A stretch of 64,000 bases of DNA from Rufibacter latericius (GTDB lineage: Bacteria > Bacteroidota > Bacteroidia > Cytophagales > Hymenobacteraceae): assembly GCF_003721515.1 (NCBI RefSeq), contig NZ_RJJD01000015.1, positions 348,258 through 412,257 of the forward strand, in the 5' to 3' direction. Shown piece by piece: positions 44 through 63,090 of the stretch. Position 1 is the first letter of the stretch; every line of letters starts with the position of its first letter. Made by a program: the position numbers and the translations under genes. The notes under the pieces are model-generated. The model was not told the origin of the DNA, ran no database searches, and saw nothing but the letters and a program-made list of their open reading frames with translations.

Positions 44-72
44 CAGGTTTTAGAGGAAACAGGGCAAAAACG
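44..72. repeat. dispersed palindrome, degenerate copy
   Basis: Contains GGTTTTAGAGGAAACAGGGC followed by AAAAAC, resembling the T-rich/A-rich halves of the element found throughout the window. It is flanked on both sides by ACTCAGA tracts. Confidence 0.5.
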
Positions 73-109
73 CCAAGACACACAAGGGTAAGTCAATTTA
101 GGAAAAATG

Positions 110-140
110 ACTCAGGACTCAAGACTCAGAACTCAGGACT
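110..140. repeat. ACTCAGA tract
   Basis: Three successive variants of a unit of about ten bases (ACTCAGGACTCAAGACTCAG, then AACTCAGGACT). It lies just past the stop codon of the EamA gene. Confidence 0.75.
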
Positions 141-150
141 ATCATCAGGA

Positions 151-1017
151 CTATTTCAGCAGAATGATCATCACCGATCCGGCCACCATGATGATGGCGC
201 CGAAGGTTTTCTTGAGGATGTTGGTTTCCTGGAAGAACCGGTAACCCAGGCCAATGCTCACCAGCGTGGAAAGCTGGAACAGAGAAAGCGCATAGCCTAC
301 CGGCATTTGCTCAAAGGCGTAGTTGGTGGTCAGTTGCATCAGCCCGATGCAGAAAACCAGCAGGGCGTACCGCTTCAGTTTGCCCGCTACCCACTCCTGC
401 TTCCATTGCTGCCGATGCGCCGCTGCCCAGAACGTCACGATGCCAGAGAACAGCGCGCCAAACCAGCACCAGCTGATAAAGGAAACCGTGGGCGAGGAGT
501 ACAGAATGGTTTTCTTGATGAACACGGCTTCTATGGCCGCAAAGACCATGGCCCACAACCTGAACTGGATACTGGGTTGCTTCAGAAGTTTCCAGGAGAA
601 TTTTTCATCGGTGGTATCCAGCACAAAATAGCTTCCACCAATGATGAGCATGATTCCCAACGCGCCCCAGATATTCGGGAACTCGCCCAGTAGCACCATG
701 GCCGCCAGCAACCCCACCACCGATTTGTACGCGTTCACCGGCCCCAGCACCGACAGGTCTCCCGTTTGCAAGGCCCGCACCAGAAAACCGTTCCCCAACG
801 CCCCAAACAAGCCCACTAAAAGCGAGTAGCCCCAAAACCCCAGCGGCAGTGCAAGCCAATCTGTATCAAGGGCTGGGAAAACGCAAAGCACGCTCAGCAG
901 GAAATAGGTATTGAAGTTTACCAGCAACGGCAGGCTACCCATAGCAGTAAGCTGCTTCTGGAAAACATTGGCCAACGGGTTGGAAAGGATGCGGAGGAAA
1001 ACAGCAAGAAAAATCAA
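151..1017 (-). CDS. EamA/DMT family transporter
   Basis: A very hydrophobic protein of 288 residues with about ten membrane segments, the size and layout of drug/metabolite transporters made of two EamA repeats. The N-terminal half has the Gly/Asn-rich turn (YSLLVGLFGALGNGFLVRA) and the S-V-L-G-P-V-N-A-Y-K stretch near residues 85-100 typical of the fold. Such proteins export or import small metabolites across the inner membrane; the substrate cannot be told from sequence. The start is a TTG at 1017 because no nearby ATG exists. It seems monocistronic, with repeats on its downstream side. Confidence 0.8.
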   Translation of the reverse strand: MIFLAVFLRILSNPLANVFQKQLTAMGSLPLLVNFNTYFLLSVLCVFPALDTDWLALPLGFWGYSLLVGLFGALGNGFLVRALQTGDLSVLGPVNAYKSVVGLLAAMVLLGEFPNIWGALGIMLIIGGSYFVLDTTDEKFSWKLLKQPSIQFRLWAMVFAAIEAVFIKKTILYSSPTVSFISWCWFGALFSGIVTFWAAAHRQQWKQEWVAGKLKRYALLVFCIGLMQLTTNYAFEQMPVGYALSLFQLSTLVSIGLGYRFFQETNILKKTFGAIIMVAGSVMIILLK

Positions 1018-1192
1018 AGCAGCAGAAAAAGGAAAAACGCCTGTTGGTTTCGAGGCAAATTAGAAAGAATGGGCTTAAAACGCAGGAGCTTCCCTAAAAC
1101 AAACTCGGAAAGGCTACCCTCTACAACCAATTACTTTCTCCCTTTATACGAGCAGATTCCTTCTGCCATCACCTCTTTCTGTTTTCCGCTTC

Positions 1193-1218
1193 TTTTCCTG
1201 AAAACAACCTCTAAACAG
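1193..1218. repeat. dispersed palindrome, partial copy
   Basis: TTTTCCTGAAAACAACCTCT followed by AAACAG carries the core and right half of the recurrent palindrome. It lies just past the 3' end of the small membrane protein gene. Confidence 0.6.
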
Positions 1219-1552
1219 ACTTTTCCCACAGCTGCCGCACCAAGTATCCAGACAAAGCGCTTAGTCCACCCACTACCCCGCCAATGAGCACGGTCACTAT
1301 CAGGAGAATCCAGGGTGAATTCACGGTGAGCATGGTGGCCACTCGCCCGCTGAGAACGCCATCGGTGACCACGTGCCAGAACAGCGCCGCACCCAGCCAT
1401 GTCAACCCGATAGCCAGGAAACCCGACAGAAACGCCTGCCCGCCGTAGCGCGCCTTCCAGAACGCCAACCCGAAACAAACCAGGGCCAGAGTCCACCACG
1501 GCAGAAAGAACTGAACCAATAACCCGAGGAGAAGAATCAGAATGAAGAGCAT
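1211..1552 (-). CDS. small hydrophobic membrane protein
   Basis: A 113-residue protein with about four predicted membrane helices (residues 2-20, 35-60, 75-95) and few charges until the last residues (RQLWEKSV). I do not recognise the family. Its ATG lies one base after the stop codon of the penicillin acylase gene on the same strand, so the two are almost certainly co-transcribed and translationally coupled. It may act with, or help membrane placement of, the acylase, but this is only an inference from position. Confidence 0.75.
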   Translation of the reverse strand: MLFILILLLGLLVQFFLPWWTLALVCFGLAFWKARYGGQAFLSGFLAIGLTWLGAALFWHVVTDGVLSGRVATMLTVNSPWILLIVTVLIGGVVGGLSALSGYLVRQLWEKSV

Positions 1553-1553
1553 G

Positions 1554-3962
1554 TCAGTTTTTCTTTAAAGTCCAGTGAACGGAAGTAGCTGCCGGCTGAT
1601 CATTGGCCGACCGCAGGAATAGTAACCGGTGCAGTTTCCCGTTTTGCCAGTCGTTTAACAAATTGTCGTAGAAACGGCTGGCCGGATTTCCACTTTGCCC
1701 GCCGGGATACACGCCCCAGGCCTGCACCTGAGGCCCTAACTGCACCACCATGCGCCATGACGGTCCGTGGCTACCGTTGAGGGCATTGATGGAGTTGGCG
1801 CTTCCGCCTGCGAATAACTGGTGCCCGAAGCCCGGTAACTGCGCCAAATGCCGGATGTGCGAATCTCTGGCGTTTCCCCACTGCCATTGCGAACCGCCCA
1901 CGCCCAAACTGTCGGTTACCTTTTTGAAAGAGGCGTTGACCAGATCGGCCAGGGTTTCTTTCTGAGGGGTAGTCACGTCATCGTACCATCGGCTTCTAGG
2001 CACTTGCTGGATCATCTGCACCAAACGGTCGCGGGCGGGAGCCTTGAATTCGGCCGGCGGGAAGTCATCGGACCAGATAGCGCGGGCAAGGGTTTGCCAC
2101 CATTCCTCGAAAAGCGAAGGGGCCAGCTTATCGGGCTCAAAGCGGTAGTCCCAGGCAGCCAAGGTCTGGAAAACCTTCTTCTGGGTACCCGAAAGGGAAT
2201 CCTGGTTGATCAGCCGGAGCATGGTGGGCAGCACGTTCTGGGGCACAAAACTGTAGGTATCGGTTTGGAGCAGCCTGAAACTGTCTGGCGCGGCCTGGGT
2301 CATGGAAGCTAGGCGCTGGTTGATGCGGGCTCCTCGCTCATATCCGGCAAAGTTAGAACCCAGGTAATACGGGTAATCTTTGGGGCTCACCGGCGTCTGG
2401 TTAGCAGAGCTCACAAACCCACGGTTGGGATTGAGCACCTGCGGCACCTGGTCCATGGGTATCCAGCCCTGCCAGTCATGTGCGGGGTTGGAACCATCCA
2501 GCAGGAACTTGCCTTGCCCTTGCCACTTCAAGGGGTACAATCCGTTGGAGACCACCCCAATGTTCTGGGTGTCGGCGTACAGGAAGTTGAAGGCCGGGGC
2601 GGCCCAGGTGGTGAGCGCCTGCCTGAACTCAGGAAAAGTTTTGGCCCGATTGATCAGGATAAGGGTTTTCAGCTCATTCTGGGTGTCATGTGCCGTCCAG
2701 CGGAGTGCGTGCCCCACGGGGGTGTTGCCACTTCTGAAGGCCTTTTCATTGGGCAGGTAGGCCACCGGCCCGTGGTGCGTGTACAGCACGGTATCTAAGA
2801 TGGTCTGCCCACCTTTGATGTGGATTTCCTCTACCACACGGCGCACCGGTTTCCATTGGTTATCATGCCAATACTGTTGCCGTTTCCCGTCCTTGAATTT
2901 GATCTCGAACCAGTCCAGCACATCGGCTCCCACGTTCGTAATGCCCCAGGAAATCTGCTCATTAAACCCGATGCCCACGCCCGGTGCCCCCGGAATCACC
3001 ACTCCGTAGGTATTGATACCCGGCGCATGCAACTGCACGGCGTGCCAGATAGAAGGCAATGTCAGGTTCAGGTGCGGGTCTGAGGCCAGCAATGGATAAC
3101 CACTGGCTGTGCGGGCACCCGCCACCGCCCAGTTGTTGCTGCCCAGGTTCTCGGGTTTTTGGCGCTCCAGCGTATGAAAAGCAACCTTGGGCATGAACTC
3201 GGTGGGTGCAGGCGGAATGGGAAGTGGTTTAAACCTCTGCCGGGTGCCCACCGGCACAATGGGCTCCTCATGGAAAGGATAATCGGGGAACAGGTCTTGT
3301 ATGATGTCTGAGCCGTATTTGCGCAGGTTGTTTGTCATGCGCAGATCATCTGAGAAGCCGGTCATGTCATAGGCCAGCATCTTCAAAAGCAACGCAATCT
3401 TCAATGGAGCCCATTCCTCGGGGGCATAGTGCAGGAGCTTGTACTCAAACGGATACTCATGCGGCGCCAGTTGCCCGATATAGGCATTCACCCCGGCACA
3501 ATAGGCTTCTATCACTGCCCGACTCTGCGGGTCTGCCATCATCCGCGCCAAAGATTTCCTTGCCGAGGTCATCATGCCCATCCGGCGCTGGTAACGGTCC
3601 ATCTCAAGGGTTCGGTCGCCAATGATCTCAGACAACCGGCCGGCCGCCGCGTGCGTCATAAACTCCATCTGCCACAGCCGGTCTTTGGCCGTGAGATAGC
3701 CCTGGGCGTAGTACAGGTCATGGTCGTTCTGCGCGAAAATGTGCGGTATCCGCAGAGAATCGAACCTGATCTGCACCGGGGCTTTCAATCCGTCCAGCGT
3801 CAGTTCCTCAGAGGCGAAATCGTCATCAGAACCGCTGCGCCAGAAGCCTTCATAGGGGCTCAGAAACGGCCCCAGCGCCGGAACCACGCCATAGGTACGG
3901 TTTAAGCCATAGATGACTAAAACGGTTAATAAAACGGCAAGAATGGCTTTTATCCATTTCAT
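1554..3962 (-). CDS. penicillin acylase family Ntn-hydrolase
   Basis: An 802-residue protein with an N-terminal membrane/signal segment (residues 4-20) and the penicillin amidase fold: an alpha-chain region to about 270, then the maturation point LGSNNWAVAG with the likely nucleophile Ser275 after Gly274. The beta chain shows the family blocks SGYPLLASDPHL and GAPGVGIGFNEQISWG. The family is made as an inactive precursor, exported, and self-cleaved before Ser to give a two-chain amidase of N-acyl substrates such as acyl-homoserine lactones or beta-lactam side chains. Here the true substrate is unknown. It heads a two-gene unit with the small membrane protein. Confidence 0.9.
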   Translation of the reverse strand: MKWIKAILAVLLTVLVIYGLNRTYGVVPALGPFLSPYEGFWRSGSDDDFASEELTLDGLKAPVQIRFDSLRIPHIFAQNDHDLYYAQGYLTAKDRLWQMEFMTHAAAGRLSEIIGDRTLEMDRYQRRMGMMTSARKSLARMMADPQSRAVIEAYCAGVNAYIGQLAPHEYPFEYKLLHYAPEEWAPLKIALLLKMLAYDMTGFSDDLRMTNNLRKYGSDIIQDLFPDYPFHEEPIVPVGTRQRFKPLPIPPAPTEFMPKVAFHTLERQKPENLGSNNWAVAGARTASGYPLLASDPHLNLTLPSIWHAVQLHAPGINTYGVVIPGAPGVGIGFNEQISWGITNVGADVLDWFEIKFKDGKRQQYWHDNQWKPVRRVVEEIHIKGGQTILDTVLYTHHGPVAYLPNEKAFRSGNTPVGHALRWTAHDTQNELKTLILINRAKTFPEFRQALTTWAAPAFNFLYADTQNIGVVSNGLYPLKWQGQGKFLLDGSNPAHDWQGWIPMDQVPQVLNPNRGFVSSANQTPVSPKDYPYYLGSNFAGYERGARINQRLASMTQAAPDSFRLLQTDTYSFVPQNVLPTMLRLINQDSLSGTQKKVFQTLAAWDYRFEPDKLAPSLFEEWWQTLARAIWSDDFPPAEFKAPARDRLVQMIQQVPRSRWYDDVTTPQKETLADLVNASFKKVTDSLGVGGSQWQWGNARDSHIRHLAQLPGFGHQLFAGGSANSINALNGSHGPSWRMVVQLGPQVQAWGVYPGGQSGNPASRFYDNLLNDWQNGKLHRLLFLRSANDQPAATSVHWTLKKN

Positions 3963-4042
3963 AGTGGCAGACGGCAGCGGTGGATTCTGCCGGTAAGATA
4001 GGTTCTTCTCAAGGCAATGGCAAGCCGAGAAGGGTCATTCTA

Positions 4043-4076
4043 TTTTAAGGCTGTTTTCTGGAAAAGAGGGTCAAAA
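4043..4076. repeat. dispersed palindrome
   Basis: Both halves are visible: TTTTAAGGCTGTTTTCTGG followed by AAAAGAGGGTCAAAA. Placed upstream of the penicillin acylase start. Confidence 0.65.
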
Positions 4077-4102
4077 TGGAATGATTAGAGCCTTGTTGGG
4101 CC

Positions 4103-4284
4103 AATCCCTGGTGGTTGCCCTTTCCAGTAACCACGCTGAAAACGGCTTCGTCATCCCCACTTCCTTCAAAGGGGTGCAATCAGGTATTGTAATGCATCAA
4201 GAAGCCTACTGCCGTCTGCCGTTGTTGGTGTTATCACCAACAACCTGTATTGCGGGGCAAACGCAACGGCAACCACCAGGGATT
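4103..4284. repeat. inverted-repeat module with hairpin
   Basis: AATCCCTGGTGGTTGCC (4103-4119) is repeated perfectly inverted at 4268-4284. Inside lies GTTGTTGGTG-TTAT-CACCAACAAC (4221-4244). A related hairpin with one mismatch occurs at 26023-26046, so this is a second dispersed family. Confidence 0.7.
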
Positions 4285-4317
4285 GCCCCTACCAGTATGC
4301 ATTACACCAATAAGCAC

Positions 4318-4345
4318 AAAAAAGCCGGAGTTTTCCCCGGCCTTC
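4318..4345 (-). terminator. probable terminator of the Spy-like gene
   Basis: On the minus strand an AAGGCCGG/CCGGCTTT stem of about eight pairs (one G-U) is followed by a run of T. It lies 24 bases past the stop codon. Confidence 0.55.
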
Positions 4346-4368
4346 GTGCTTTCAAAAAATGAAATTTA

Positions 4369-4806: not shown

Positions 4807-4938
4807 ACTATGGATTTGCTTTATTTGGTTTACAGATTAGAGTAGATATTACGCTGTTGGTTTAATCATACCTAAAAAAGACAAACTATCTGGTAGGCAA
4901 TCAGGCATATGGAACAGTTTGTAAAAAAATTGCCTTAA

Positions 4939-4974
4939 TTTTAAGGACGTTTTCCGGAAACTAAGCCAAAAACG
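4939..4974. repeat. dispersed palindrome
   Basis: TTTTAAGGACGTTTTCCGG followed by AAACTAAGCCAAAAACG. It sits in the divergent region between the Spy-like gene and the M16 operon, so it is not a terminator of either. Confidence 0.65.
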
Positions 4975-5020
4975 CGCCAAACTAACCGAACGACCCTTTT
5001 TTCTTTTTAACGCTTTTTGA

Positions 5021-8469: not shown

Positions 8470-8527
8470 ATCGGCCCCGCTTTGTGGCTCTTTTATAGGA
8501 AAGGGCCACAAAGCGGGGCCGATCTTT
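8470..8527 (+). terminator. strong terminator of the M16 operon
   Basis: A 19-bp perfect stem (8470-8488 with 8505-8523) with a 16-base loop, followed by CTTTTAT, starting 17 bases past the stop. Confidence 0.9.
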
Positions 8528-17774: not shown

Positions 17775-17814
17775 CTGTTTCAAGGCCAAATTCCGGAAAT
17801 CGGGTTAAAAACAG
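17775..17814. repeat. dispersed palindrome
   Basis: CTGTTTCAAGGCCAAATTCC followed by GGAAATCGGGTTAAAAACAG, outer arms CTGTTT/AAACAG. It lies in the divergent gap between the gene at 17200 and the STM3941-like gene. Confidence 0.65.
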
Positions 17815-20039: not shown

Positions 20040-20083
20040 TTCTGTTTTAGATGCCCTTTTCCCAAAAGGCCTCTAAAACAGAA
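20040..20083. repeat. dispersed palindrome, near-perfect copy
   Basis: TTCTGTTTTAG (20040-20050) pairs with CTAAAACAGAA (20073-20083), and CTTTT-CCC-AAAAG lies in the centre. It is 14 bases after the map stop and 40 before the next start. Confidence 0.8.
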
Positions 20084-24747: not shown

Positions 24748-24789
24748 GCTGTTTTTAGCCTACAATTGGAAAAACAGGCCTAAAGCAGC
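24748..24789. repeat. dispersed palindrome
   Basis: Arms GCTGTTTTTAGCC and GGCCTAAAGCAGC surround a TTGGAAAAACA core, 15 bases past the stop codon. Confidence 0.65.
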
Positions 24790-30196: not shown

Positions 30197-31387
30197 TTAG
30201 TTCTTCACTACCCGGCGGGAGATCTCCTTGTTGTTGTCGGTTTTGATGTGCAGGATATACATGCCCCTGGAAAGATGCTCTGTAGGAATCACGTGCGCGC
30301 CGCTGGTCAAAGACCGCTGCGGAATAGCGGCCCCATACACTTTCTTGCCTTGCAGGTTAAACAGTTCTACCTGCGCATCTTTAAACTCTACGCTGTTCAG
30401 GGCCACTTTCAGGTTATTGGTGGTAGGGTTAGGGAATACCGCCAGAGAAGATTCAGGCAGCTGCTCAGCAGACCCAGTGATCACAAAAGTCTGGAAGTCG
30501 CTCATTACTTCTCTGATGGCATTTTCCAGCTCTTCGTCCTCGGTCTCCCTGATTTTGATGATCCGCTCAGTCAAGACATTGCTGCTGTTGTAGGTGAGCA
30601 CGTACTGAGATTCGGTTTCAAAGGCCCAGGCATTGTTCTCCCACTCCTGGGTCAAAAGGCCCGTCAGGTTCATCTTGTCATCATAGGTGATGATTTCCCG
30701 CTCTCTGTTCACCCAGGTTGTCCCAGAAGCGTCTTCGGTGGTAAGGGTTAGGGTACGAGTGGTAGAATTATAGGAGCTGTTGTTTCTTTCACTGTTAGTC
30801 CAGGTATTGGTGGCGGCATCGTAGGTTTGGGTTTCGTACATGATGTACCCGGCAGGGTTGGTTGCCTCTGAGGTCCACATGAAGTTGGTGTCCCGCTCAT
30901 CGTCTTTCCAGGTATTGGTGGTTGCATCCCACTCCTGGTACACAATGGTAGTGGGCCTGGTTTCATTTCCGGTATAGGTATAAATGTATTTATCTGAGTT
31001 GACGAGCGGGGTTGTGCTGGTGCTGCTCTGCATGGTAATGGTAGACTGGCGCCCTTGGGCATCATACGTGTAGGTAGACTTGGAATCGGTTTTCCAAGTG
31101 CTGGTGAGCATGTCCCAGCTTTGGTTTTCGCTCTCCTTCAGGATGAAGTTCTCATAGGTGTTCAAGGCCCGAGACATGTTAATCGCGTCGGTGGCTTGTA
31201 TGCTCTCCGTTTCCTGGCCTCGGGTGTTGTAGGTGTTGGTGTACGTAAACGCCGCTACCCAAGCCGGCGGCGATGCTTCTCCATCCCAGTAGTAAACCTG
31301 GGTTTTGCGGGGCAAGGTGAGGGTGGTTTGTGCAAAAGCACTTGCGCAAAGGGCGCATAGCAACACTATAAGGTAAAGAGTTTTCAT
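30197..31387 (-). CDS. T9SS cargo protein with YD-like repeats (paralog 1)
   Basis: 396 residues: signal peptide ending ASAFAQ, a beta-rich body with repeating YTYDAQGRQSTIT-like and QEWDATTNTWKDDER-like units of about 30-40 residues, and a type A sorting domain (SLAVFPNPTTNNLKVALNS to SRRVVKN). The C-terminal domain directs export through the type IX system and covalent or LPS anchoring at the surface. It is about half like the next gene in layout, and the two are probably tandem duplicates. The body function is unknown. Confidence 0.85.
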   Translation of the reverse strand: MKTLYLIVLLCALCASAFAQTTLTLPRKTQVYYWDGEASPPAWVAAFTYTNTYNTRGQETESIQATDAINMSRALNTYENFILKESENQSWDMLTSTWKTDSKSTYTYDAQGRQSTITMQSSTSTTPLVNSDKYIYTYTGNETRPTTIVYQEWDATTNTWKDDERDTNFMWTSEATNPAGYIMYETQTYDAATNTWTNSERNNSSYNSTTRTLTLTTEDASGTTWVNREREIITYDDKMNLTGLLTQEWENNAWAFETESQYVLTYNSSNVLTERIIKIRETEDEELENAIREVMSDFQTFVITGSAEQLPESSLAVFPNPTTNNLKVALNSVEFKDAQVELFNLQGKKVYGAAIPQRSLTSGAHVIPTEHLSRGMYILHIKTDNNKEISRRVVKN

Positions 31388-31766: not shown

Positions 31767-32957
31767 TTAGTTCTTAACCACCCTGCGGGAAATCTCTTTG
31801 TGGTTGTCTGTGATGATGCGCAGGATATACATGCCTGCACTCAGATGGTGTAAGGGAATCATCTGTTTTCCACTATTGATGGAGGCTGAAGTGGTGGTGG
31901 CATCATACACTTTCCTCCCTTGCAGGTCCAGGACCAGCACTTGGGCTTTCTGAAAGCCAGCATCTGTTAACGTGATCTTCAGGTCCCCTGAGGTGGGATT
32001 TGGAAAGATTGACAGCGAAGACTCCGGCAGTTGCTCCGCGGCTCCAGTGACACTAAACGTCTGAAAGTCTGAGTACACCTCCTTGTAAGCGTTCTCCAGT
32101 TCTCCGCTATTGGTTCTTCTTACTGTGGTGGTTTTCTCCGTTAGGGCATATTCAGCATTGAACGTGAGGGCATACTGCATCTCTACCCTGAATTCCCAAA
32201 CATTGCTAACCCATTCCCGAGCCTGCATCCGGATGGGGTTCATTTGAGCATCAAATATGGTAAGGGTCCGGGAACTAGGCACCCAACTATCGCCAGACGG
32301 CAGCTCAATGGTAGAGAATAATGTTTTGGTGGCGGGGTCATAGGAGTTGCTGTGTTTTTCTTTATTTCCCCAGCCATAATCCCAAGGTCCGGGTGCTGTT
32401 TGAATTTCATAGCTGAGCAACTTGAAGGGATTGTTTTGATCTGTAGACCAGACCAGATTGATGTCTCTTTCCACATCCAGCCAGTTCTTGGTATATTCAT
32501 CCCACTCCTGCCGAAGAACCATATAGGGGTTTAGGTCATTTTCGCTATGCTGATAACTAGTCCTGGAGGTATTAACAAAAGAGGAGCGGTCAGGGCCCTT
32601 TCCCTGTTGAGTTATGCTGGTCAGCCTTCCCTGCGCATCATACGCATACGTAGACTTGGAGCCATCCTCCCAGCCGCCAGAACCAGGGAATTGCTCCAAC
32701 GTTTCCAATAACCCAAAATCACCATAGGTGTGGAGAGTCTTGTGTAATTTTAAATCACCTTGAAAAAGTACGCGTTCGGTTTCCTGCCCGCGCGCGTTGT
32801 ACACATGAGAATAACTAAAAGTTTGTATCCAATAGCCTGTTTGTGGGCTTCCATGCCATTCGTAGTAATCTGTCCAGCGAGGTAGCGTGAGGTTCGTTTG
32901 CGCCCATGAACTGAAGGAGAGGGCGCATGAAATTAGGAAAAGGTAAAGAGTTCGCAT
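31767..32957 (-). CDS. T9SS cargo protein with YD-like repeats (paralog 2)
   Basis: 396 residues from the ATG at 32957 (MRTLYLFLISCALSFSSWAQ signal peptide). The body shares motifs with paralog 1: YNARGQETE, KSTYAYDAQGRLTSIT, and VTGAAEQLPESSLSIFPNPT before the sorting domain ending EISRRVVKN. The repeats resemble the YD class seen in RHS proteins but without the toxin or shell parts. It is first in the minus-strand order, upstream of paralog 1, with a terminator between, so each is transcribed on its own. Confidence 0.85.
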   Translation of the reverse strand: MRTLYLFLISCALSFSSWAQTNLTLPRWTDYYEWHGSPQTGYWIQTFSYSHVYNARGQETERVLFQGDLKLHKTLHTYGDFGLLETLEQFPGSGGWEDGSKSTYAYDAQGRLTSITQQGKGPDRSSFVNTSRTSYQHSENDLNPYMVLRQEWDEYTKNWLDVERDINLVWSTDQNNPFKLLSYEIQTAPGPWDYGWGNKEKHSNSYDPATKTLFSTIELPSGDSWVPSSRTLTIFDAQMNPIRMQAREWVSNVWEFRVEMQYALTFNAEYALTEKTTTVRRTNSGELENAYKEVYSDFQTFSVTGAAEQLPESSLSIFPNPTSGDLKITLTDAGFQKAQVLVLDLQGRKVYDATTTSASINSGKQMIPLHHLSAGMYILRIITDNHKEISRRVVKN

Positions 32958-33168
32958 GGCAAGCAAGATTTACTTACACCAAGAATCACAGAGTGCCGGG
33001 GAGGCACCACACGTCTAGCTCCCAAAGGCAACTCTTGCCTACTCAGCCTTTCTGAAAAATCACCTTTGCCGATTCTGCCTTGAACATACTTAAGTTACAA
33101 AAAGCGCTTGGCTATTCATATCGTTCCTTGCATCTAATATCATGACACTTAAAAATCTACCTAAACAA

Positions 33169-33220
33169 AAAGGCACGCTTTGCGGGTGTTTTCCGGAAAA
33201 CAGCCGCAAAGCGTGCCTTT
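33169..33220 (-). terminator. terminator with dispersed-palindrome core
   Basis: Arms of 17 bases (33169-33185 and 33204-33220) pair perfectly and enclose GTGTTTTCCGGAAAACAG (33186-33203), itself the core of the dispersed palindrome. It follows the flavoprotein gene. Confidence 0.85.
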
Positions 33221-37879: not shown

Positions 37880-38522
37880 AACCTTCTTAGTTCCAGAGAT
37901 CTCTTATCTGGCTTCGGGCGGGTTGCATAAATGCCCAGTTCACGGGCCCCGATCAGGATCATTCATTTTGGGTGCTACTTTGAAAAAAAGAGCCCTAAAA
38001 CAGACGTAAGAGCATAAGCGCTCGCATCTGTTTTAGGGCTCTTTTCGTGTAAAGAGGCTCGAAGCCCACTTCGCCCCTTTCCCTTCCGCACCAATGCTTC
38101 CTTTCCTGTTTAATTTTCTCCTTTTAAGCCTTCTGTAGCTTTCAAAGTCACCCGCTCCTCTAATTACTTACTTCACAATCAATTATCTCTGGCAATTTTC
38201 TGCCTCCAAAAATCTCCTCTTCTCACCCAAACCTTCTTAATCCCTAAAAAATAGCACCCCAATTCAGCCTTCGGTTTGCCGCTTTCACTCGCAGTAAATA
38301 CGGTTTCAGCCAGTTCGTGCTCATTCCTCATTTTTCATGGTAGGGGTAATCTGAGTCAAGCCCATCTATACATTTACAAACGCAGATTATACTTCACACA
38401 CCAAATAGAACAAACCCTACAGGATGTTCCTCTAACGTGAAGAAGCATAACACTGCCGCTGTAAACCCTTGAAAACCAATTACAACCTTTAACACTTTTG
38501 TTTCACTTAATTAACCCCTATC
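37880..38522. other. spacer with terminator and pyrimidine-rich tract
   Basis: 643 bases: a 19-bp terminator (37986-38045) built on the dispersed palindrome, then about 200 bases (38070-38280) strongly rich in C and T on the plus strand, then a promoter region for the next lipoprotein. Confidence 0.65.
37986..38045 (+). terminator. terminator built on the dispersed palindrome
   Basis: AAAAGAGCCCTAAAACAGA (37986-38004) pairs with 38027-38045. The CCCTAAAACAG/CTGTTTTAGGG part is the outer half of the dispersed palindrome. Confidence 0.8.
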
Positions 38523-57247: not shown

Positions 57248-58868
57248 TCGATTTTACCTCCCGGTACTGGCGTTTCTGAGCGCCTTTCTGCTGTGGTTGG
57301 GTTGGCCGGTGAAACCACTGGCCTTTGTCTTGTTTATAGGCTGGGTACCGTTTCTGCTGCTGGAAAAGGCTATTTCTGAGAAAACGGCCCCTAAACGCGC
57401 GCGCACGTTCTTCAAGTACGCCTACCTCACGCTGCTGCTCTGGAACATCTTCACCACCTATTGGGTGAGTTACTCAACCCTGGGCGGCGGCATTGCGGCC
57501 GTGGTGTTCAACGCGCTGTTCATGATGATGCCCATGATGGCCTTCTTCTGGACCAAACGCGCGGCCGGCAAGACCATCGGGTACCTGAGTTTGCCGGTGT
57601 ACTGGATCGCGTTTGAGCAGTTTCACCTGAATTGGGACCTGAGCTGGCCATGGCTCACTCTGGGGAACGGCTTTGCTTCGCTGCCCAGTTGGGTGCAGTG
57701 GTATGAATACACCGGTTTCCTGGGCGGATCTGTCTGGGTATGGGCCGTGAACCTGTTGGTGTTTCTCGCGCTGACCTCACCGGAGAAGAAAAAAAGCAAA
57801 TGGCTTGCCCCGGTTCTCACCTTTTCCTTGCCGCTGCTACTCTCCTTCTTTATAGGCAGCCAATATCAGGAGAAAGGAGAGTTGGCCGAGGTGGTGGTAG
57901 TGCAGCCTAATTTCGACCCATATAAAGAGAAATTTGAGGGTGGCGAAGGCTACGTTCCGTTTGAGCAGCAATTCGCTCGAATGCTTGCTTTGTCAGAGCA
58001 GCAGATCACGACCAACACCAAATTCGTGCTCTGGCCCGAGACCTCCATCAGCAACGGCATCAACTGGGAAGAAGGTTTCGAGCGGAGCCCGGTAAGTTAC
58101 GCCCTGCGCGATTTCCTGAACCGCCATCCCGGCGTTGAACTGGTGTCTGGCATTACCTCGGCACGGCTGTACCCAGATTCTACGAAGAGAAGTAGCACGG
58201 CCCGTTATCATGAGCAGATCGGGTATTACGATGTTTACAATGCGGGGCTGCACTTCAAACCCTCGGGGCAGCATGAGTTCTACCACAAGTCCAAGTTGGT
58301 GCCGGGCGTAGAGAAAACCCCTTACCCAGGCGTGTTCAAAGCCTTGAAGATGTTCGCCATTGATTTGGGCGGCATCGCCGGAAACATGGGCACGCAGGAA
58401 ACAAGGGCCATCTTCCAGCACAGCCTAGACCCAAAGTTGGTGGGTGCACCGGTGGTCTGCTATGAATCCATCTACGGCGAGTACGTGAGCGAATACGTGC
58501 GCAACGGTGCCAGTGCCATCTTCATCATCACCAACGATGCCTGGTGGAGCGACTCGCCGGGCTACAAGCAGCATTTAGCGTATGCCTCTCTGCGGGCCAT
58601 TGAAACCAGACGGGCCGTGGCGCGTTCAGCCAATACGGGTATCTCGGGGTTCATCAATCAGAAAGGTGAGCTGTTGCAGAAATCGGGGTGGTGGGTGCCG
58701 GCGGCCCTGCGCGGCCAGATCAGGTTCAACCAGGAGCAGACGTTCTACACCCGCCACGGCGAGTTCATTGGGCACGGGACCCAGTGGCTGGCATTGGCGT
58801 TAGTGGTGTTGGCGATCGTACTGCGGTTTACGCGCCGGGCGGCAAATAGGGAAGTGTCGGTGGTATAA
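57219..58868 (+). CDS. lnt: apolipoprotein N-acyltransferase
   Basis: 549 residues, about eight membrane helices, then the nitrilase-like domain with the catalytic triad Glu274 (WPETSIS), Lys near 357 (YHKSKLVPG) and Cys414 (VVCYESIYG). Lnt adds the third acyl chain to lipoproteins in the inner membrane. The start is TTG at 57219, 57225 or 57228, with no ATG near, and it overlaps the end of rsmI. A palindrome-like sequence lies inside the gene at 57372-57397. Confidence 0.92.
   Translation: MSLLSKETNNRFYLPVLAFLSAFLLWLGWPVKPLAFVLFIGWVPFLLLEKAISEKTAPKRARTFFKYAYLTLLLWNIFTTYWVSYSTLGGGIAAVVFNALFMMMPMMAFFWTKRAAGKTIGYLSLPVYWIAFEQFHLNWDLSWPWLTLGNGFASLPSWVQWYEYTGFLGGSVWVWAVNLLVFLALTSPEKKKSKWLAPVLTFSLPLLLSFFIGSQYQEKGELAEVVVVQPNFDPYKEKFEGGEGYVPFEQQFARMLALSEQQITTNTKFVLWPETSISNGINWEEGFERSPVSYALRDFLNRHPGVELVSGITSARLYPDSTKRSSTARYHEQIGYYDVYNAGLHFKPSGQHEFYHKSKLVPGVEKTPYPGVFKALKMFAIDLGGIAGNMGTQETRAIFQHSLDPKLVGAPVVCYESIYGEYVSEYVRNGASAIFIITNDAWWSDSPGYKQHLAYASLRAIETRRAVARSANTGISGFINQKGELLQKSGWWVPAALRGQIRFNQEQTFYTRHGEFIGHGTQWLALALVVLAIVLRFTRRAANREVSVV
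57372..57397. repeat. dispersed-palindrome-like sequence inside lnt
   Basis: TATTTCTGAGAAAACGGCCC followed by CTAAAC resembles the core and right half of the element, but lies in the coding sequence (residues about 52-60). It may be chance. Confidence 0.3.
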
Positions 58869-58896
58869 GTAGCAGGACAAATCAAAAAATCTATTT

Positions 58897-58985
58897 TGTT
58901 ATCCTGAAAGGATTTTGTGGGCGAACTAGAAAAGCTGGAAATAAACGCCATTACCTTTCGCCACCAAGATTCTTTCAGGATGACA
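58897..58985. repeat. 89-bp MITE-like element, copy 3
   Basis: Begins TGTTATCCTGAAAGGATTTT and ends TTCTTTCAGGATGACA, with interior GCGAACTAGAAAAGCT. Same size and end pairing as the copies at 9571 and 11608. Confidence 0.85.
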
Positions 58986-59031
58986 GAGAGAGAGAAGAAG
59001 TTATAGTTATTTTCAACAGATTGCTTAGTTT

Positions 59032-59071
59032 CTGTTTTCGGGTGCTTTTTCAGAAATCGGCCCTGAAACAC
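59032..59071. repeat. dispersed palindrome
   Basis: CTGTTTTCGGGTGCTTTTT followed by CAGAAATCGGCCCTGAAACAC, 61 bases before the inositol phosphatase start. Confidence 0.65.
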
Positions 59072-59131
59072 CTCCATAAGCTCAATACGTCCTGCTTGCC
59101 TCTGGCAAAGGGACCATATAAATAGAAAAAC

Positions 59132-59932
59132 ATGACAGACATATCCGCACTCCGCGATCAGGTAGTACAGCTCACCAAAGAGGTAGGCAAGTTCATTTTG
59201 CACGAGGCCGCCAACTTCGACATCTCCAACCTGGAGCACAAAGGCCTGAACAACCTGGTCTCCTACGTAGACAAAGAGGCCGAAGAGCGCCTGGTGGCCG
59301 GACTGGAGAAGTTCCTGCCTGAGGCTGGCTTCATCACCGAGGAGGAAACCAAGTCTGAGAAGGGCGAGGAGTTCAACTGGATCATCGATCCGCTGGACGG
59401 CACCACCAACTTCATCCACGGCTTGCCGGTGTACTCGGTGAGCATCGCGCTGATGCAGAAGGACGAGCTGGTCATTGGCGTAGTGTATGACATCACCCGC
59501 GACGAGTGCTATCACGCTGTGAAAGGCGGCGGCGCGTTCTGTAACGATAAGAAGATCTCCGTTTCCGGGGCCCCTACGCTAGGTGATTCTTTGATTGCCA
59601 CCGGTTTCCCATACTACAGCTTCGATCTGATGCAGAAGTACCTGCAGGTGATGGGCTCGTTCATGCAAGGCTGCCACGGTGTGCGCCGATTGGGTTCTGC
59701 TGCCTTGGATCTGGCTTACGTGGCCTGTGGCAAGTTTGAAGGCTATTTTGAATTCAATATCAATTCGTATGATGTAGCGGGAGGCGCTTTGCTGGTGCAG
59801 GAAGCCGGCGGTCAGGTCACCGATTTCAGGGGCGGCAAGAACTACGTCTTCGGGCGCGAGATTTGCGTGAGCAACAACCCGGCGGTGCAGCAGGAGATGC
59901 TCAAACTTATTGAACCGTTCTGGAAAGAGTAG
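59132..59932 (+). CDS. suhB: inositol monophosphatase family protein
   Basis: 266 residues with the lithium-sensitive phosphatase motifs: EEETKSEKGE (metal Glu near 70), IIDPLDGTTNFIHG (residues 84-97), and the late INSYDVAGGALLVQEAGGQVTDF. It hydrolyses inositol phosphates or similar sugar phosphates with Mg ions; bacterial members are often called SuhB. It stands alone between a MITE-like element and a near-perfect palindrome. Confidence 0.93.
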   Translation: MTDISALRDQVVQLTKEVGKFILHEAANFDISNLEHKGLNNLVSYVDKEAEERLVAGLEKFLPEAGFITEEETKSEKGEEFNWIIDPLDGTTNFIHGLPVYSVSIALMQKDELVIGVVYDITRDECYHAVKGGGAFCNDKKISVSGAPTLGDSLIATGFPYYSFDLMQKYLQVMGSFMQGCHGVRRLGSAALDLAYVACGKFEGYFEFNINSYDVAGGALLVQEAGGQVTDFRGGKNYVFGREICVSNNPAVQQEMLKLIEPFWKE

Positions 59933-59940
59933 GGACTGCC

Positions 59941-59980
59941 CTGTTTAGAGGCTGTTTTCTGTTAATCGGCCTCTAAACAG
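59941..59980. repeat. dispersed palindrome, clear copy
   Basis: CTGTTTAGAGGC (59941-59952) is perfectly inverted at 59969-59980, with a TGTTTTC core half between. It starts eight bases past the preceding stop. Confidence 0.8.
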
Positions 59981-60063
59981 CTCGGGCGGTTTCAACAGCG
60001 ATACCGGCAATTTACGTTCGTTCGTTAAACTATTTTTACCTTTGCCGGCGTTACCCACATGTT

Positions 60064-60246
60064 ATGGTACAGGAAATTATTATCGTCTTCATCTTTCTTC
60101 TGGCGGCAGGCTACCTGCTCCGGATGGGCTATAAGAGCTTTTTCTCCAAGGAAGTGGGCTGCGCCAAAGGTTGCGGCGGCGCTTGTTCTACCATTGACCT
60201 GGCCAAAATCCAGCGGGAGATAGAAGCCAAACAAGCTACCAGGTAA
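60064..60246 (+). CDS. FeoB-associated Cys-rich membrane protein
   Basis: 60 residues: one membrane helix (about 4-20) followed by the cysteine cluster VGCAKGCGGACSTID (four Cys if the two ends are counted) and a short basic tail. This is the pattern of small proteins coded beside feoB for ferrous iron uptake. No feo gene is in the window, so it may be a stand-alone copy. Confidence 0.8.
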   Translation: MVQEIIIVFIFLLAAGYLLRMGYKSFFSKEVGCAKGCGGACSTIDLAKIQREIEAKQATR

Positions 60247-60263
60247 ATCAAGCGCATAGGTAG

Positions 60264-60307
60264 AAAAGCAGAAGCCGTCTTCTTCAAGGGAGACGGCTTC
60301 TGCTTTT
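60264..60307 (+). terminator. terminator of the Cys-rich protein gene
   Basis: AAAAGCAGAAGCCGTCT (60264-60280) pairs over 17 bp with 60291-60307 and ends in TTTTT. Confidence 0.9.
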
Positions 60308-60316
60308 TAAAGAGGT

Positions 60317-60355
60317 CTGTTTTCAGGCTGTTCTCTGGAAAACAGCTTGAAAACA
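60317..60355. repeat. dispersed palindrome, clear copy
   Basis: TGTTTTCAGGCTGTT (60318-60332) and AACAGCTTGAAAACA (60341-60355) pair at 14 of 15 positions. Confidence 0.8.
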
Positions 60356-60508
60356 AGCCTATGCTTAGAATCCCTGACAGCCAGGAGAAACTCCACCTGA
60401 AAGCCCGAATATTATTTTATTTGAATATAACCGGCAACCCAGCCGTGTTTTTACGTATAGTCCAAGATACAACAACGCTATTGACAACACCTTAATATAC
60501 CTCTGGCT

Positions 60509-60847
60509 ATGCAAGACAAGGAAGAAGAAAGAAGCTTAATTAACGTAGAAGCTCGCCTTAACAAAGAAGGATACACCCAGGACTTCAGAGTAACCGAAGA
60601 TAACCGGCTCCAGGCGTTGACCGGGGATAAAATCTATGGTCCGGAGGAAGTGAAGATTGTGGATTTTTACCGCTTCGAAGGGGAAACCGATCCAGATGAC
60701 ATGTCTATCCTCTACGCTCTTGAATGCGCTGACGGCACCAAAGGCACCATCTCCAATTCGTACGGACCTTACGCCGACCAAGGCATTGACGACTTTATGA
60801 AACTGGTGGAAGACCGGGGCAAGAACCTAGACAAGAAGCATAAATAA
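60509..60847 (+). CDS. conserved uncharacterised protein
   Basis: 112 residues, soluble and acidic, with a central EVKIVDFYRFEGETDPDDMSILYALECADGTKGTISNSYG block. I recognise the pattern from small Bacteroidota proteins of unknown role. It has no signal peptide or membrane segment. It is convergent with mscS and ends 19 bases before their shared terminator. Confidence 0.75.
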   Translation: MQDKEEERSLINVEARLNKEGYTQDFRVTEDNRLQALTGDKIYGPEEVKIVDFYRFEGETDPDDMSILYALECADGTKGTISNSYGPYADQGIDDFMKLVEDRGKNLDKKHK

Positions 60848-60866
60848 CAGCCTTTACCCTAAAAAG

Positions 60867-60900
60867 AAAAAGCGGCCGAATCACTCTTCGGCCGCTTTTT
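60867..60900. terminator. bidirectional terminator overlapping the end of mscS
   Basis: AAAAAGCGGCCGAA (60867-60880) pairs over 14 bp with 60887-60900. The right arm codes for the last residues of the MscS protein (KAAEE), whose stop codon lies in the loop. Confidence 0.85.
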
Positions 60901-61876
60901 CTTTGTCTTCTCCGTTAGTTCCGTCATGGGGCAGGGCCAACTTTTCTTTTTCCGGTTCCTGATCATCTGTTGACAGGGTAAGTTTGGGAAAAGCTTCTTT
61001 GAGTTCGATGGACAGGTCTTTGCCGCCCTTCACCCCGAAATTGAGGGTTCTGATAGGGAACGGAATCTCTATTTTTTGCTCGTCAAACGCTTTCTTGATC
61101 TTCATGATGGCGTAGCTCTTGGCGTTGACAAAATCGGTTTGGCGCTTGTAGCTGATCCAGTAGCGCACCAGGAAATTGATGCTGCTCTCCCCAAATTCCT
61201 CGTACACCACCTCTACTTCTTTGCCTGAGATCATGTTGGGGATGTCTACCATGGCCCCTTTCACCACCTGCTGCACCCGTTCCAGGTCCTCGGCATACGA
61301 AACCCTTACTTTCAGGTCAATCCGCCGGATTCCGTAATGCGAGAAGTTGGTCAACGCTGATTCAAAGACTTTGCGGTTAGGTACTTTTACCAGCTCGCCG
61401 GTCTGCCTTCTGATGTCCACGGTACGCAGGTTGATGCGCTCAATGGTCCCGAAGTGTTCGTTGGTTTCTATCACATCGCCTACCACAAACGGTTTCCTGA
61501 AGGCAATGATCACCCCCGAGATGAAGTTGGCGGCAATGTCCTGAAAGGCAAAACCCAGTGCTAACCCGATGATACCAGCACCCGCCAACAACGTTGTCAC
61601 CGTCTTGTCCAGCTTCAGGATGCTCAGGGTGAAGAAAATGCCCAAGGTAAGCACGGTCACGTACACGGTGGTACCCACCAGGTTGTTCAAAGCGCTGCTA
61701 TGCGTGAACCTGATGAGCAGTTTGTCTGAGGTACGCCGGAGAATACGGGCGGCCACAAACGTGAGCACCAGCACCAACAAGGCCAGGAACAGGTTGGGCA
61801 GCATGAGCACTATCTGCTTCAGCCAAATCTCAAGCTTACGCCAAAGGAGTTGAAATGCTTCGTTAATTTCGGTCAC
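60881..61876 (-). CDS. mscS: MscS family mechanosensitive channel
   Basis: 331 residues, GTG start at 61876. Three membrane helices (about 20-42, 60-82, 90-110), the third being the Gly/Ala-rich pore helix (TLLAGAGIIGLALGFAFQDIAANFISG), then the cytoplasmic vestibule (VGDVIETNEHFGTIERINLRTVDI). It opens under membrane tension to release osmolytes. A charged C-terminal tail (from about 295) ends inside the terminator hairpin. Confidence 0.93.
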   Translation of the reverse strand: MTEINEAFQLLWRKLEIWLKQIVLMLPNLFLALLVLVLTFVAARILRRTSDKLLIRFTHSSALNNLVGTTVYVTVLTLGIFFTLSILKLDKTVTTLLAGAGIIGLALGFAFQDIAANFISGVIIAFRKPFVVGDVIETNEHFGTIERINLRTVDIRRQTGELVKVPNRKVFESALTNFSHYGIRRIDLKVRVSYAEDLERVQQVVKGAMVDIPNMISGKEVEVVYEEFGESSINFLVRYWISYKRQTDFVNAKSYAIMKIKKAFDEQKIEIPFPIRTLNFGVKGGKDLSIELKEAFPKLTLSTDDQEPEKEKLALPHDGTNGEDKEKAAEE

Positions 61877-61986
61877 AGGAAAGGAAATAAATATACCACT
61901 GAACCCTTGGCTTGCGAAGCCTCAGGCGCTAATTTCCATCATACGCAATCTTAGGCAATCTAGCTACAGAAAGTATGCCAGCCCCA

Positions 61987-63012
61987 TCAACCCCACACCT
62001 TCGTGCCTTCTGAGCAGTTGCGGCACATCTCTATCTGGCTTCGGCCTTGCAGCAAAGAACCCCTGAACTTGCGGTACGCATCGCTTTTCCAAAGCTGTTG
62101 AAAGCTCTGCTGCTGCAGGTCCCCCAACCGGTAATGGGCATCTTTGTCAAAACAGCAGGGCACCACCTTTCCATCCCAGGTGATGACGCAGGAATGCCAC
62201 ATCTTCCAGCAGCCATCAATCAACTTATTCTTTAGCGAGTATGTGCCGTTGGGTTGCGCCTGGTACCTTGAGTAATAGTCAATGGTGGGAATGAGCGGCG
62301 AGCCTTGGGCATAGTCATAGATCTGCGCGGTCTTGAACCAGACATCGTCCACGCCCAATTCTTTGGCCAGTTGCCTGGCCTCGTCTATCTGATGCTCGTT
62401 GGGACGCACCACCAGAAACTGGAAGATAAGGTAAGGTGTCTTGGACTTGAGCTCGCGCTTGTACTTCACCAGCCGTTTGGTACCTTCCAGGACCTTATCT
62501 AGTTTGCCGCCCACGCGGTACTGCTGATATACGTCCTGGGTGGTGCCGTCCAGCGAGATGATCAGTCGGTCAAGGCCAGATTCTACCGTTTTGCGGGCGT
62601 TTTCCTCAGAAAGGTAATGGGCGTTGGTAGAGGTGGCGGTGTAGAGGCCTTTTTTGGAGGCGTATTTGACCAGGTCCAGGAAAGACTTGTGCAGGTACGG
62701 CTCTCCCTGAAAGTAAAAAAGCAGGTACAGCAAACGGCCCTGCAGTTGGTCAATGGTCTGTTTGAAGAGATCGTCTGACAGCATGCCCGTGGGTCGGGTG
62801 AAAGACCGGAGGCCGCTGGGGCACTCGGGGCAGCGCAGGTTGCAGGACGTGGTAGGCTCAAAGGAGATGCTCACGGGACTTCCCCAGTGGCGGGGTTTCT
62901 TGGTGAGCCGGGCTAAGGCGTAGCTGCTCACCACCTGCAGGGCGTTCCAGGCGCGGCGCGGGGTTAGCTTAGACGCTAAGTTTAATCCATCCTGAAAGGT
63001 GCCTCGGGTCAA
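61987..63012 (-). CDS. radical SAM/SPASM domain protein
   Basis: 341 residues, TTG start at 63012 since no ATG lies near. The iron-sulfur motif is SCNLRCPEC (Cys57, Cys61, Cys64), and the C-terminal SPASM region contains KMWHSCVITWDGKVVPCCFDKD and EMCRNCSEG for auxiliary clusters. Such enzymes modify peptides, proteins or small molecules by radical chemistry. No precursor peptide gene is evident nearby, so the substrate is unknown. A hairpin lies between it and the upstream TlpA-like gene. Confidence 0.88.
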   Translation of the reverse strand: MTRGTFQDGLNLASKLTPRRAWNALQVVSSYALARLTKKPRHWGSPVSISFEPTTSCNLRCPECPSGLRSFTRPTGMLSDDLFKQTIDQLQGRLLYLLFYFQGEPYLHKSFLDLVKYASKKGLYTATSTNAHYLSEENARKTVESGLDRLIISLDGTTQDVYQQYRVGGKLDKVLEGTKRLVKYKRELKSKTPYLIFQFLVVRPNEHQIDEARQLAKELGVDDVWFKTAQIYDYAQGSPLIPTIDYYSRYQAQPNGTYSLKNKLIDGCWKMWHSCVITWDGKVVPCCFDKDAHYRLGDLQQQSFQQLWKSDAYRKFRGSLLQGRSQIEMCRNCSEGTKVWG

Positions 63013-63036
63013 GTGCTTTGTATAGTATAAAACAGG

Positions 63037-63062
63037 TGCTATCCTCTGCAGACAGCACCTGT
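63037..63062 (-). terminator. hairpin before the radical SAM gene
   Basis: ACAGGTGCT (near 63032) pairs with AGCACCTGT (63054-63062) around TATCCTCTGCAGACAG. It follows the TlpA-like gene on the minus strand but has no clear T run. Confidence 0.5.
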
Positions 63063-63066
63063 TCGT

Positions 63067-63090
63067 GTTTTAAACCTGTTTAGGCAAAAG
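63067..63090. repeat. dispersed palindrome, degenerate copy
   Basis: GTTTTAAACCTGTTTAGGCA followed by AAAG. It is followed by a TACTTTTG-like box read on the minus strand (63085-63092). Confidence 0.4.

What the first reader, a model, noticed from the sequence alone, without database searches (positions are those of the whole stretch)
44..63090. About 32 copies of a ~40-bp imperfect palindrome in the gaps between genes
Seen: variants of TGTTTTAGGGCTGTTTTC, two to four bases, then the reverse complement, occur at nearly every inter-transcript gap (clear copies 20040-20083, 59941-59980, 60317-60355, 24748-24789, 17775-17814, 4043-4076; about 26 weaker ones). The halves drift but pairing is kept. 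They sit in divergent, convergent and tandem gaps, so they are not simply terminators, and one copy runs into an ATG (20626). The density is about one per 2 kb. Inference: a clade-specific repeat with a role in transcription, mRNA ends or nucleoid binding, or a non-autonomous mobile element. I know of no named family matching it.
Basis: partly seen in the sequence, partly recalled or inferred. Interest (0 to 1): 0.82.

Follow-up and report, generated by a model that had tools for sequence, protein, structure and literature searches.

The report
Genus-wide DNA mark at gene boundaries
One bacterial genus (Rufibacter and close kin) carries a 40-base mirror-symmetric DNA word about once every 2,000 bases, mostly just after genes, and some species use clearly different spellings of it, which suggests that an unknown protein reads it; none of the described families tested fits.

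Summary
The repeat is real and larger than reported. The genome is Rufibacter-like and holds about one 40-bp dyad per 2 kb (34 in the window at 20 bits or more; about 2,800 extrapolated), with few or no hits in shuffled sequence. All 16 genus genomes held carry it; 184 other genomes of the family give 0-16 pattern matches against 0-18 control. It is chiefly a double-stranded DNA motif: four T/A cores at 11-10-11 bp steps, whose TT pairs are 96-99% identical between species. Sites keep their position while other bases drift, and three species have clearly distinct dialects, in place. Sites sit in 114 of 153 convergent gaps and 20-100 bp after stop codons; they are rarer in short tandem gaps. 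RAYT/REP, intrinsic terminator, PilT-type uptake and extra HU paralogue were tested and not met. Best reading: binding site of an unidentified genus-specific oligomeric protein marking transcription-unit boundaries. The reader protein was not found.

The parts
34..73 (.). site, called coding/edge
   Evidence: 28.6 bits
1179..1218 (.). site, tandem gap
   Evidence: 39.7 bits
   Evidence: 39.7 bits
4936..4975 (.). site, divergent gap; same position in 5 of 5 other genomes aligned
   Evidence: 31.2 bits
8477..8516. near-perfect copy after a stop codon in a convergent gap; 17-19 of 19 pairs with other bases in 5 of 6 relatives, 15 in the sixth (counted by hand); also a terminator-like hairpin
   Evidence: 29.5 bits
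8558..8597 (.). second site of the same convergent gap
   Evidence: 32.4 bits
8993..9032 (.). hit inside predicted coding sequence
   Evidence: 32.1 bits
10751..10790 (.). site, tandem gap, 66 bp upstream of a start codon
   Evidence: 33.3 bits
10911..10950 (.). site, tandem gap, 8 bp after a stop codon
   Evidence: 34.3 bits
11744..11783 (.). site, tandem gap, 40 bp after a stop codon
   Evidence: 38.8 bits
17140..17178 (.). site, tandem gap; present in 6 of 6 other genomes aligned, 5 of 6 at nearly the same offset
   Evidence: 33.6 bits
17775..17814 (.). site, divergent gap
   Evidence: 33.4 bits
20042..20081 (.). site, tandem gap, 15 bp after a stop codon
   Evidence: 28.0 bits
20588..20627 (.). 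weak site running into ATG 20626
   Evidence: 20.5 bits
21379..21418 (.). site, convergent gap
   Evidence: 33.8 bits
24749..24788 (.). site, convergent gap
   Evidence: 32.3 bits
25954..25994 (.). weak site, convergent gap
   Evidence: 20.4 bits
27659..27698 (.). site, tandem gap
   Evidence: 29.9 bits
29110..29148 (.). site, divergent gap
   Evidence: 27.9 bits
31676..31715 (.). near-perfect copy, tandem gap
   Evidence: 36.0 bits; (I2, 25-nt arms)
33175..33214 (.). near-perfect copy, tandem gap
   Evidence: 34.1 bits; (I1)
37963..38003 (.). site, tandem gap; its right half forms an inverted repeat with the left half of the next site
   Evidence: 27.7 bits; (I4)
38028..38067 (.). site, tandem gap
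   Evidence: 35.1 bits
39628..39667 (.). site directly after the stop codon of DNA polymerase I; a copy ends at the same place in 6 of the 7 Rufibacter/Sabulibacter loci (the seventh starts too near)
   Evidence: 35.5 bits
40892..40931 (.). hit inside the polA coding sequence, probably kept by the protein
   Evidence: 32.0 bits
42622..42661 (.). site, divergent gap between polA and aldolase genes
   Evidence: 33.0 bits
47169..47208 (.). site, tandem gap; present in 9 of 9 other genomes aligned, 8 at nearly the same offset
   Evidence: 37.8 bits
54403..54442 (.). site, tandem gap
   Evidence: 28.4 bits
56102..56141 (.). site, divergent gap
   Evidence: 30.0 bits
56456..56495 (.). site, tandem gap, 3 bp after a predicted stop codon
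   Evidence: 37.8 bits
59032..59071 (.). site, tandem gap
   Evidence: 36.3 bits
59941..59980 (.). site, tandem gap, 8 bp after a stop codon
   Evidence: 36.1 bits
60317..60356 (.). site, tandem gap
   Evidence: 39.3 bits
63065..63104 (.). site, tandem gap
   Evidence: 29.2 bits

Best explanation
The element is a dyad-symmetric double-stranded DNA recognition site, roughly YYGTTTTNRGSCYGTTTTC-NN-GAAAACRGSCYNAAAACRR, 40 bp long: four T/A cores on about one face of the helix. An unidentified sequence-specific protein, confined to Rufibacter and kin and probably a dimer with two DNA contacts per subunit or a tetramer, reads it at about 2,800 places per genome. The sites sit at transcription-unit boundaries, above all 20-100 bp after stop codons. 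I propose that the bound protein works as a boundary or nucleoid-architecture factor (insulating neighbouring units, limiting read-through or the spread of supercoiling). Protein and sites co-evolve, so species come to differ in dialect at positions that stay put. Shown: motif, symmetry, spacing, near-independence of halves, restriction to the genus within what was searched, shared positions, in-place dialects, position bias. Inferred: that a protein reads it, its oligomeric state, and the boundary function.
For: Fixed 40-bp architecture and spacing. Halves behave as independent draws in all five genomes tested once copies with 16 or more pairs are set aside, expected for a symmetric protein site and not for a hairpin; G-U 479 against A-C 463 on the sense strand of tandem gaps, p = 0.63. 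At 107 position-matched pairs of sites the TT/AA core columns are 96-99% identical (all 12 TTT/AAA columns: mean 0.91), other site columns average 0.55 and flanks 0.40-0.43. Sites recur within 10 bp of the same place in 107 of 167 comparisons against 23.8 expected (maximum 38 in 200 random placements); gaps agree on presence or absence in 242 of 274 comparisons. Dialects: sites in held-out loci match their own species' matrix best in 21 of 21 (G048), 18 of 21 (G045) and 17 of 19 (G017) cases, as do sites at shared positions. Found in 16 of 16 genus genomes held (15 of 16 by pattern). Boundary bias: 114 of 153 convergent gaps of 40 bp or more; 19 of 100 tandem against 21 of 34 convergent gaps of 60-100 bp, p = 7e-6; about 6 per kb at 20-80 bp after tandem stop codons, 3.9 at 80-100, about 1 further off.
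Against: No reader protein was identified; seven genus genomes show no extra strong DNABII (HU/IHF) gene. Information per site (26-47 bits, an overestimate because hits were thresholded) far exceeds the about 11 bits needed, which hints at a drive rather than plain regulatory selection. Sites also occur in 67 of 172 divergent gaps of 40 bp or more, where no 3' end is called. There is an excess of closely similar copies in G048 (683 pairs within 5 mismatches against 113 expected), G045 (308 against 40) and, less, G017 (148 against 79): recent copying or uneven site quality. The G006 dialect is not separable from G000 on held-out loci (6 of 14 own, 8 G000). Core identity at matched sites is partly ascertained, because both sites had to score as hits. 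The pattern used for other genera misses strong dialects (it nearly missed G048), and only single genomes of g2, g4 and g5 plus Pontibacter and Hymenobacter loci were checked without a model.
Confidence: 0.6

Rival explanations
1. It works like a DNA uptake sequence: a genome watermark spread in place by biased uptake and recombination (molecular drive), with a receptor as reader and no essential function inside the cell.
For: Abundance, dialects and information far above need resemble neisserial DUS (PMC3630211, passages seen). A segment probably transferred between G048-like and G022-like species carries a site in the G048 dialect (49.9 bits; next best 40.4 among the five matrices; G022's own matrix not built).
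Against: PilT family: 0 of 6 genus genomes above the cut-off, one 19.8-bit fragment in G017; but 0 of 31 family genomes pass, so this is not specific, and other uptake genes were not searched. No ungapped core of 9-12 bp. Depleted in coding sequence (0.10 per kb against 1.5-4.3). Biased to gene ends rather than to any free intergenic DNA.
Confidence: 0.15
2. A REP/MITE-like non-autonomous mobile repeat, mobilised by RAYT or another transposase; old copies decay.
For: Intergenic, palindromic, high copy; excess of similar copies in G048, G045 and slightly G017; RAYT family PF01797 in 15 of 16 genus genomes.
Against: G017 has no PF01797 match at E 0.001 but 1,104 pattern matches. At 20 RAYT loci in 15 genomes another repeat lies nearer the RAYT frame on 38 of 40 sides (13 of these have no motif copy on that side at all), the motif on 2. 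No tag tetranucleotide in matrices or flanks. Decay would not spare the TT cores nor keep position while changing dialect.
Confidence: 0.08
3. RNA-level element: bidirectional terminator or 3' mRNA-stabilising hairpin.
For: Preference for 3' ends; near-perfect copies are commoner in gaps with a 3' end (121 of 429) than in divergent gaps (7 of 76), p = 0.0003; pairing kept with changed bases at 8477-8516; in G045 convergent ends with a site have fewer ordinary terminators (10 of 36) than ends without (13 of 16). Probably true for a minority of copies.
Against: No G-U excess (in copies with 14 or more pairs 149 against 119); halves independent otherwise; a hairpin ending at the first T tract in only 5 of 108 tandem and 9 of 88 convergent orientations; over the five genomes ordinary terminators follow 104 of 230 convergent ends with a site, 40 of 76 without, 65 of 134 in outgroups; present in divergent gaps.
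Confidence: 0.1
4. Passive DNA structure: phased T/A tracts that bend DNA or attract gyrase or HU, without a dedicated reader.
For: Four tracts are nearly in helical phase (coherence 0.83), though 10% of random symmetric placements reach this.
Against: Universal proteins would hardly explain restriction to one genus and species-specific bases between the tracts.
Confidence: 0.07

Closest known systems
Neisserial DNA uptake sequence (DUS) dialects (PMC3630211; passages seen)
   Same: Abundant, dialects within a family, inverted pairs associated with terminators, foreign dialects met in genomes
   Different: Here a degenerate 40-bp dyad rather than a 10-12-mer (length recalled); depleted in coding DNA; no PilT above cut-off
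REP / RAYT palindromes (PMC3733652, PMC12306157; passages seen)
   Same: Short intergenic palindromes in high copy
   Different: No GTAG/CGTC tag, RAYT genes lie beside other repeats, one genome lacks RAYT, halves mostly do not covary
IHF/HU-type nucleoid protein sites (recalled)
   Same: About 36-40 bp with A/T tracts
   Different: No extra strong DNABII gene in seven genus genomes; symmetric site with dialects
Intrinsic bidirectional terminators (recalled)
   Same: Found after stop codons; a minority pairs fully
   Different: Most copies lack pairing constraint and a T-tract hairpin; also in divergent gaps

Membership tests
REP / RAYT system | GTAG or CGTC tag at one end | tested here: not met
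   Matrices and the commonest flank bases show none; tag as defined in PMC3733652
REP / RAYT system | RAYT gene flanked by the repeat | tested here: not met
   20 loci in 15 genomes: another repeat nearer on 38 of 40 sides, motif on 2 (first look)
REP / RAYT system | RAYT present wherever the repeat thrives | tested here: not met
   G017: 0 matches at E 0.001, 1,104 motif matches against 8 control
REP / RAYT system | Arms kept complementary | tested here: not met
   Halves independent outside a near-perfect minority
DNA uptake sequence | Short ungapped strongly conserved core of 9-12 bp | tested here: not met
   Longest runs at 90% or more are 4-6 bp (GTTT to GTTTTT) in the tight dialects
DNA uptake sequence | Genome-wide dialects | tested here: met
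   Three clear dialects in the 240 kb examined per genome; G000 and G006 not separable
DNA uptake sequence | Type IV pilus uptake machinery | tested here: not met
   Only PilT (TIGR01420) searched: 0 of 6 genus genomes above cut-off
DNA uptake sequence | Raises uptake of DNA | not testable with these tools
   needs experiment
Intrinsic terminator | GC hairpin followed by T run, pairing under selection | tested here: not met
   For most copies; met at 8477-8516
HU/IHF (DNABII) site | Genus-specific DNABII reader | tested here: not met
   One strong PF00216 match in each of 7 genus genomes (G017 has a second, 23.3 bits), as in outgroups; specificity of the single HU not tested
Rfam RNA family | Score at gathering threshold | tested here: not met
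   0 matches in the window
MITE | Target-site duplication and transposase with matching ends | not tested
   No strain pairs with empty sites examined
Sequence-specific nucleoid or boundary protein site | Bound protein | not testable with these tools
   No reader identified

The most novel reading that the evidence does not exclude
A genus-specific bacterial boundary system: one dedicated oligomeric DNA-binding protein decorates most transcription-unit ends through about 2,800 sequence-specific 40-bp sites, and its specificity drifts so fast that congeneric species have rewritten the sites in place into distinct dialects.
Probability: 0.35. Interest if true: 0.92.

Novelty: new variant of a known kind. 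Interest (0 to 1): 0.78.

Why it matters
Thousands of sites that hold their place but change spelling between species are a natural experiment in the co-evolution of a protein and its genome-wide targets. If it is a drive, it would be an uptake-type watermark in a phylum where I recall none.

Tried and rejected
RNA hairpin or terminator as the main function: rejected by shuffled-half tests, G-U/A-C counts and terminator scans. RAYT/REP: rejected. Extra HU/IHF gene: none strong in seven genomes; a comparison of HU sequences between dialects failed three times for script reasons and was dropped. PilT-based uptake: not found. Analogous dispersed dyads in outgroup genera: none in the stretches examined. 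First pattern trials had a wrong spacer (first table, second half, printed nothing); corrected. A promoter test of tandem gaps was uninformative (8 of 242 with a site against 8 of 235 without). No covariance model was built, because pairing is not the main constraint.
Full report
What is there. The window lies in a 5.67-Mb genome whose aldolase is 92-95% identical to that of seven Rufibacter and Sabulibacter records. At 20 bits and spacers 1-3 the counts are 228 and 34, extrapolating to about 2,800 per genome. A whole-genome pattern with up to 3 mismatches gives 1,929 matches against 76 for the reversed pattern. A count without any model shows the same grid: GTTT repeats at 11 bp, and GTTT to AAAC at 10, 21 and 32 bp.

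It is not mainly a hairpin. If an RNA or cruciform were selected, the arms would covary. Reassigning right halves among copies gives nearly the observed pairing: G000 11.34 against 10.89, G048 14.43 against 14.22, G045 14.11 against 14.05, G017 14.25 against 14.23, G006 10.91 against 10.06. The excess in G000 and G006 is significant but lies in a tail of near-perfect copies: 18 of 221 in G000 against 1.9 expected, 9 of 78 in G006 against 0.3; copies with 18 or more pairs are also in excess in G048, G045 and G017 (16, 18 and 6 against 9.4, 6.2 and 2.8). Without copies of 16 or more pairs the excess vanishes in all five genomes. On the sense strand of tandem gaps G-U and A-C mispairs are 479 and 463. 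The near-perfect class is commoner where a 3' end exists, 121 of 429 against 7 of 76 in divergent gaps, and one of them, 8477-8516, keeps pairing with changed bases in relatives, so a minority may double as terminators. The 30-copy window alignment shows weak covariation.

Where it sits. In five genomes pooled the site is in 114 of 153 convergent gaps of 40 bp or more, 67 of 172 divergent, 0 of 133 tandem gaps under 40 bp, 7 of 43 of 40-60 bp, 19 of 100 of 60-100 bp, 52 of 112 of 100-150 bp, 105 of 173 of 150-250 bp, 66 of 92 of 250-400 bp and 46 of 82 longer. For gaps of 60-100 bp, convergent (21 of 34) and tandem (19 of 100) differ with p = 7e-6, so space alone does not explain the avoidance of what are probably within-operon gaps. 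In the own genome the density is about 6 per kb at 20-80 bp after tandem stop codons (3.9 at 80-100), 10 per kb at 20-40 bp in convergent gaps, near 1 per kb beyond 200 bp, and zero within 20 bp of start codons. Ordinary terminator hairpins coexist: 104 of 230 convergent ends with a site, 40 of 76 without, 65 of 134 in outgroups; G045 alone differs (10 of 36 with, 13 of 16 without). Tandem gaps of 100 bp or more with a site have a terminator more often (80 of 269 against 35 of 190, p = 0.006), consistent with boundaries, though the site itself may contribute. Gene calls are my own codon-based predictions, so gap types carry some error.

Who has it. Of 80 loci around the aldolase gene, 7 of 7 from Rufibacter and Sabulibacter hold 6-12 copies (61 in all) and 1 of 73 others holds one match. 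Of 200 genomes of the family searched by pattern, 15 of 16 in the genus have 478-2,018 matches against 4-12 control; the sixteenth, G048, has 37 against 9; the other 184 have 0-16 against 0-18 control, with at least one listed match, in G024, that looks by eye like a true copy. G048 is not an exception: its copies use another dialect and are about as dense. The same caveat holds for other genera, whose dialects the pattern could miss; dyad counts without a model find nothing similar in stretches of one genome each of g2, g4 and g5 or in the Pontibacter and Hymenobacter loci.

Dialects in place. Matrices trained on 200 kb each (463 kb for G000) differ: G048 CCGTTTTCGGGCTCATTTC, G045 NCGTTTAGGGGCTSTTTTT, G017 CCGTTTTTGGCCTGTTTTC, while G000 and G006 are looser. 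Sites in held-out loci match their own species best in 21 of 21, 18 of 21 and 17 of 19 cases; G006 only 6 of 14. Yet positions are shared: across 123 orthologous gaps, 107 of 167 site comparisons fall within 10 bp, against 23.8 expected and at most 38 in 200 random placements; presence or absence agrees in 242 of 274 comparisons (comparisons share genomes and are not independent). Of sites at positions shared with G000, 19 of 20 in G045, 5 of 5 in G048, 25 of 25 in G017 and 4 of 5 in G006 fit their own dialect best (some of the sites were in the training sets of G045, G017 and G006). Across 107 matched pairs the TT and AA cores are 96-99% identical, the columns outside the twelve TTT/AAA positions average 0.55, flanks 0.40-0.43. 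In G022 a segment 97-99% identical to G048, where the one other region compared is 72-87%, carries a site that fits the G048 matrix best: a piece probably transferred keeps its donor's spelling.

Mechanism. Near-independence of halves, fixed geometry, conserved cores and co-ordinated dialects point to a trans-acting reader of double-stranded DNA. Each half holds two cores one helical turn apart, so I infer a dimer of two-contact subunits or a tetramer. The bias to transcription-unit ends suggests a boundary or architecture role. The main doubts are the information content, 26-47 bits per site against about 11 needed (overestimates because hits were thresholded), and the excess of similar copies in G048, G045 and slightly G017, which leave room for an uptake-like drive. 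I tested the drive's usual machinery only through PilT, absent above cut-off in 6 of 6 genus genomes but also in the rest of the family. RAYT mobilisation fails: one genome has none, and at 20 RAYT loci another repeat lies nearer on 38 of 40 sides. HU-type proteins show no extra strong gene in seven genus genomes.

Literature. Searches for Rufibacter with palindromes, intergenic repeats or genomes (lists of 8 to 25 papers, three of the four cut short) listed no paper that describes this element; listings and starts of abstracts only were seen. Passages were seen in PMC3733652, PMC12306157 and PMC3630211. IHF/HU footprints, the DUS length and the absence of known uptake sequences in this phylum are recalled, not looked up.

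Noticed in passing
L025 / L289 (G000:C17:379500-382500): The only RAYT-like gene found in the own genome lies among several copies of a different repeat (CAAGTTTGAGCG...CGGTAACTTG).
   Followed up: partly
L287 834-2301 (G022) against L271 (G048): RAYT-bearing segment 97-99% identical between two species whose one other compared region is 72-87% identical, with a site in the G048 dialect: probable lateral transfer.
   Followed up: partly
Hymenobacter loci (L065, L068, L075, L086, L090, L091, L096) and some gaps of the genus: Direct repeats of 7-bp period in intergenic DNA (AGCT at 7, 14, 21; GAGT/ACTC at 7, 14).
   Followed up: no
L006 (G000:C6:20001-40000): Only 2 sites in 20 kb where 6-14 are usual; the stretch also holds 111 N.
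   Followed up: no
G024:C1:218562-218597 (another genus of the family): An isolated pattern match that looks like a true copy of the motif.
   Followed up: no
window 30197-31387 and 31767-32966: Two neighbouring proteins with Por_Secre_tail domains (secretion sorting).
   Followed up: no
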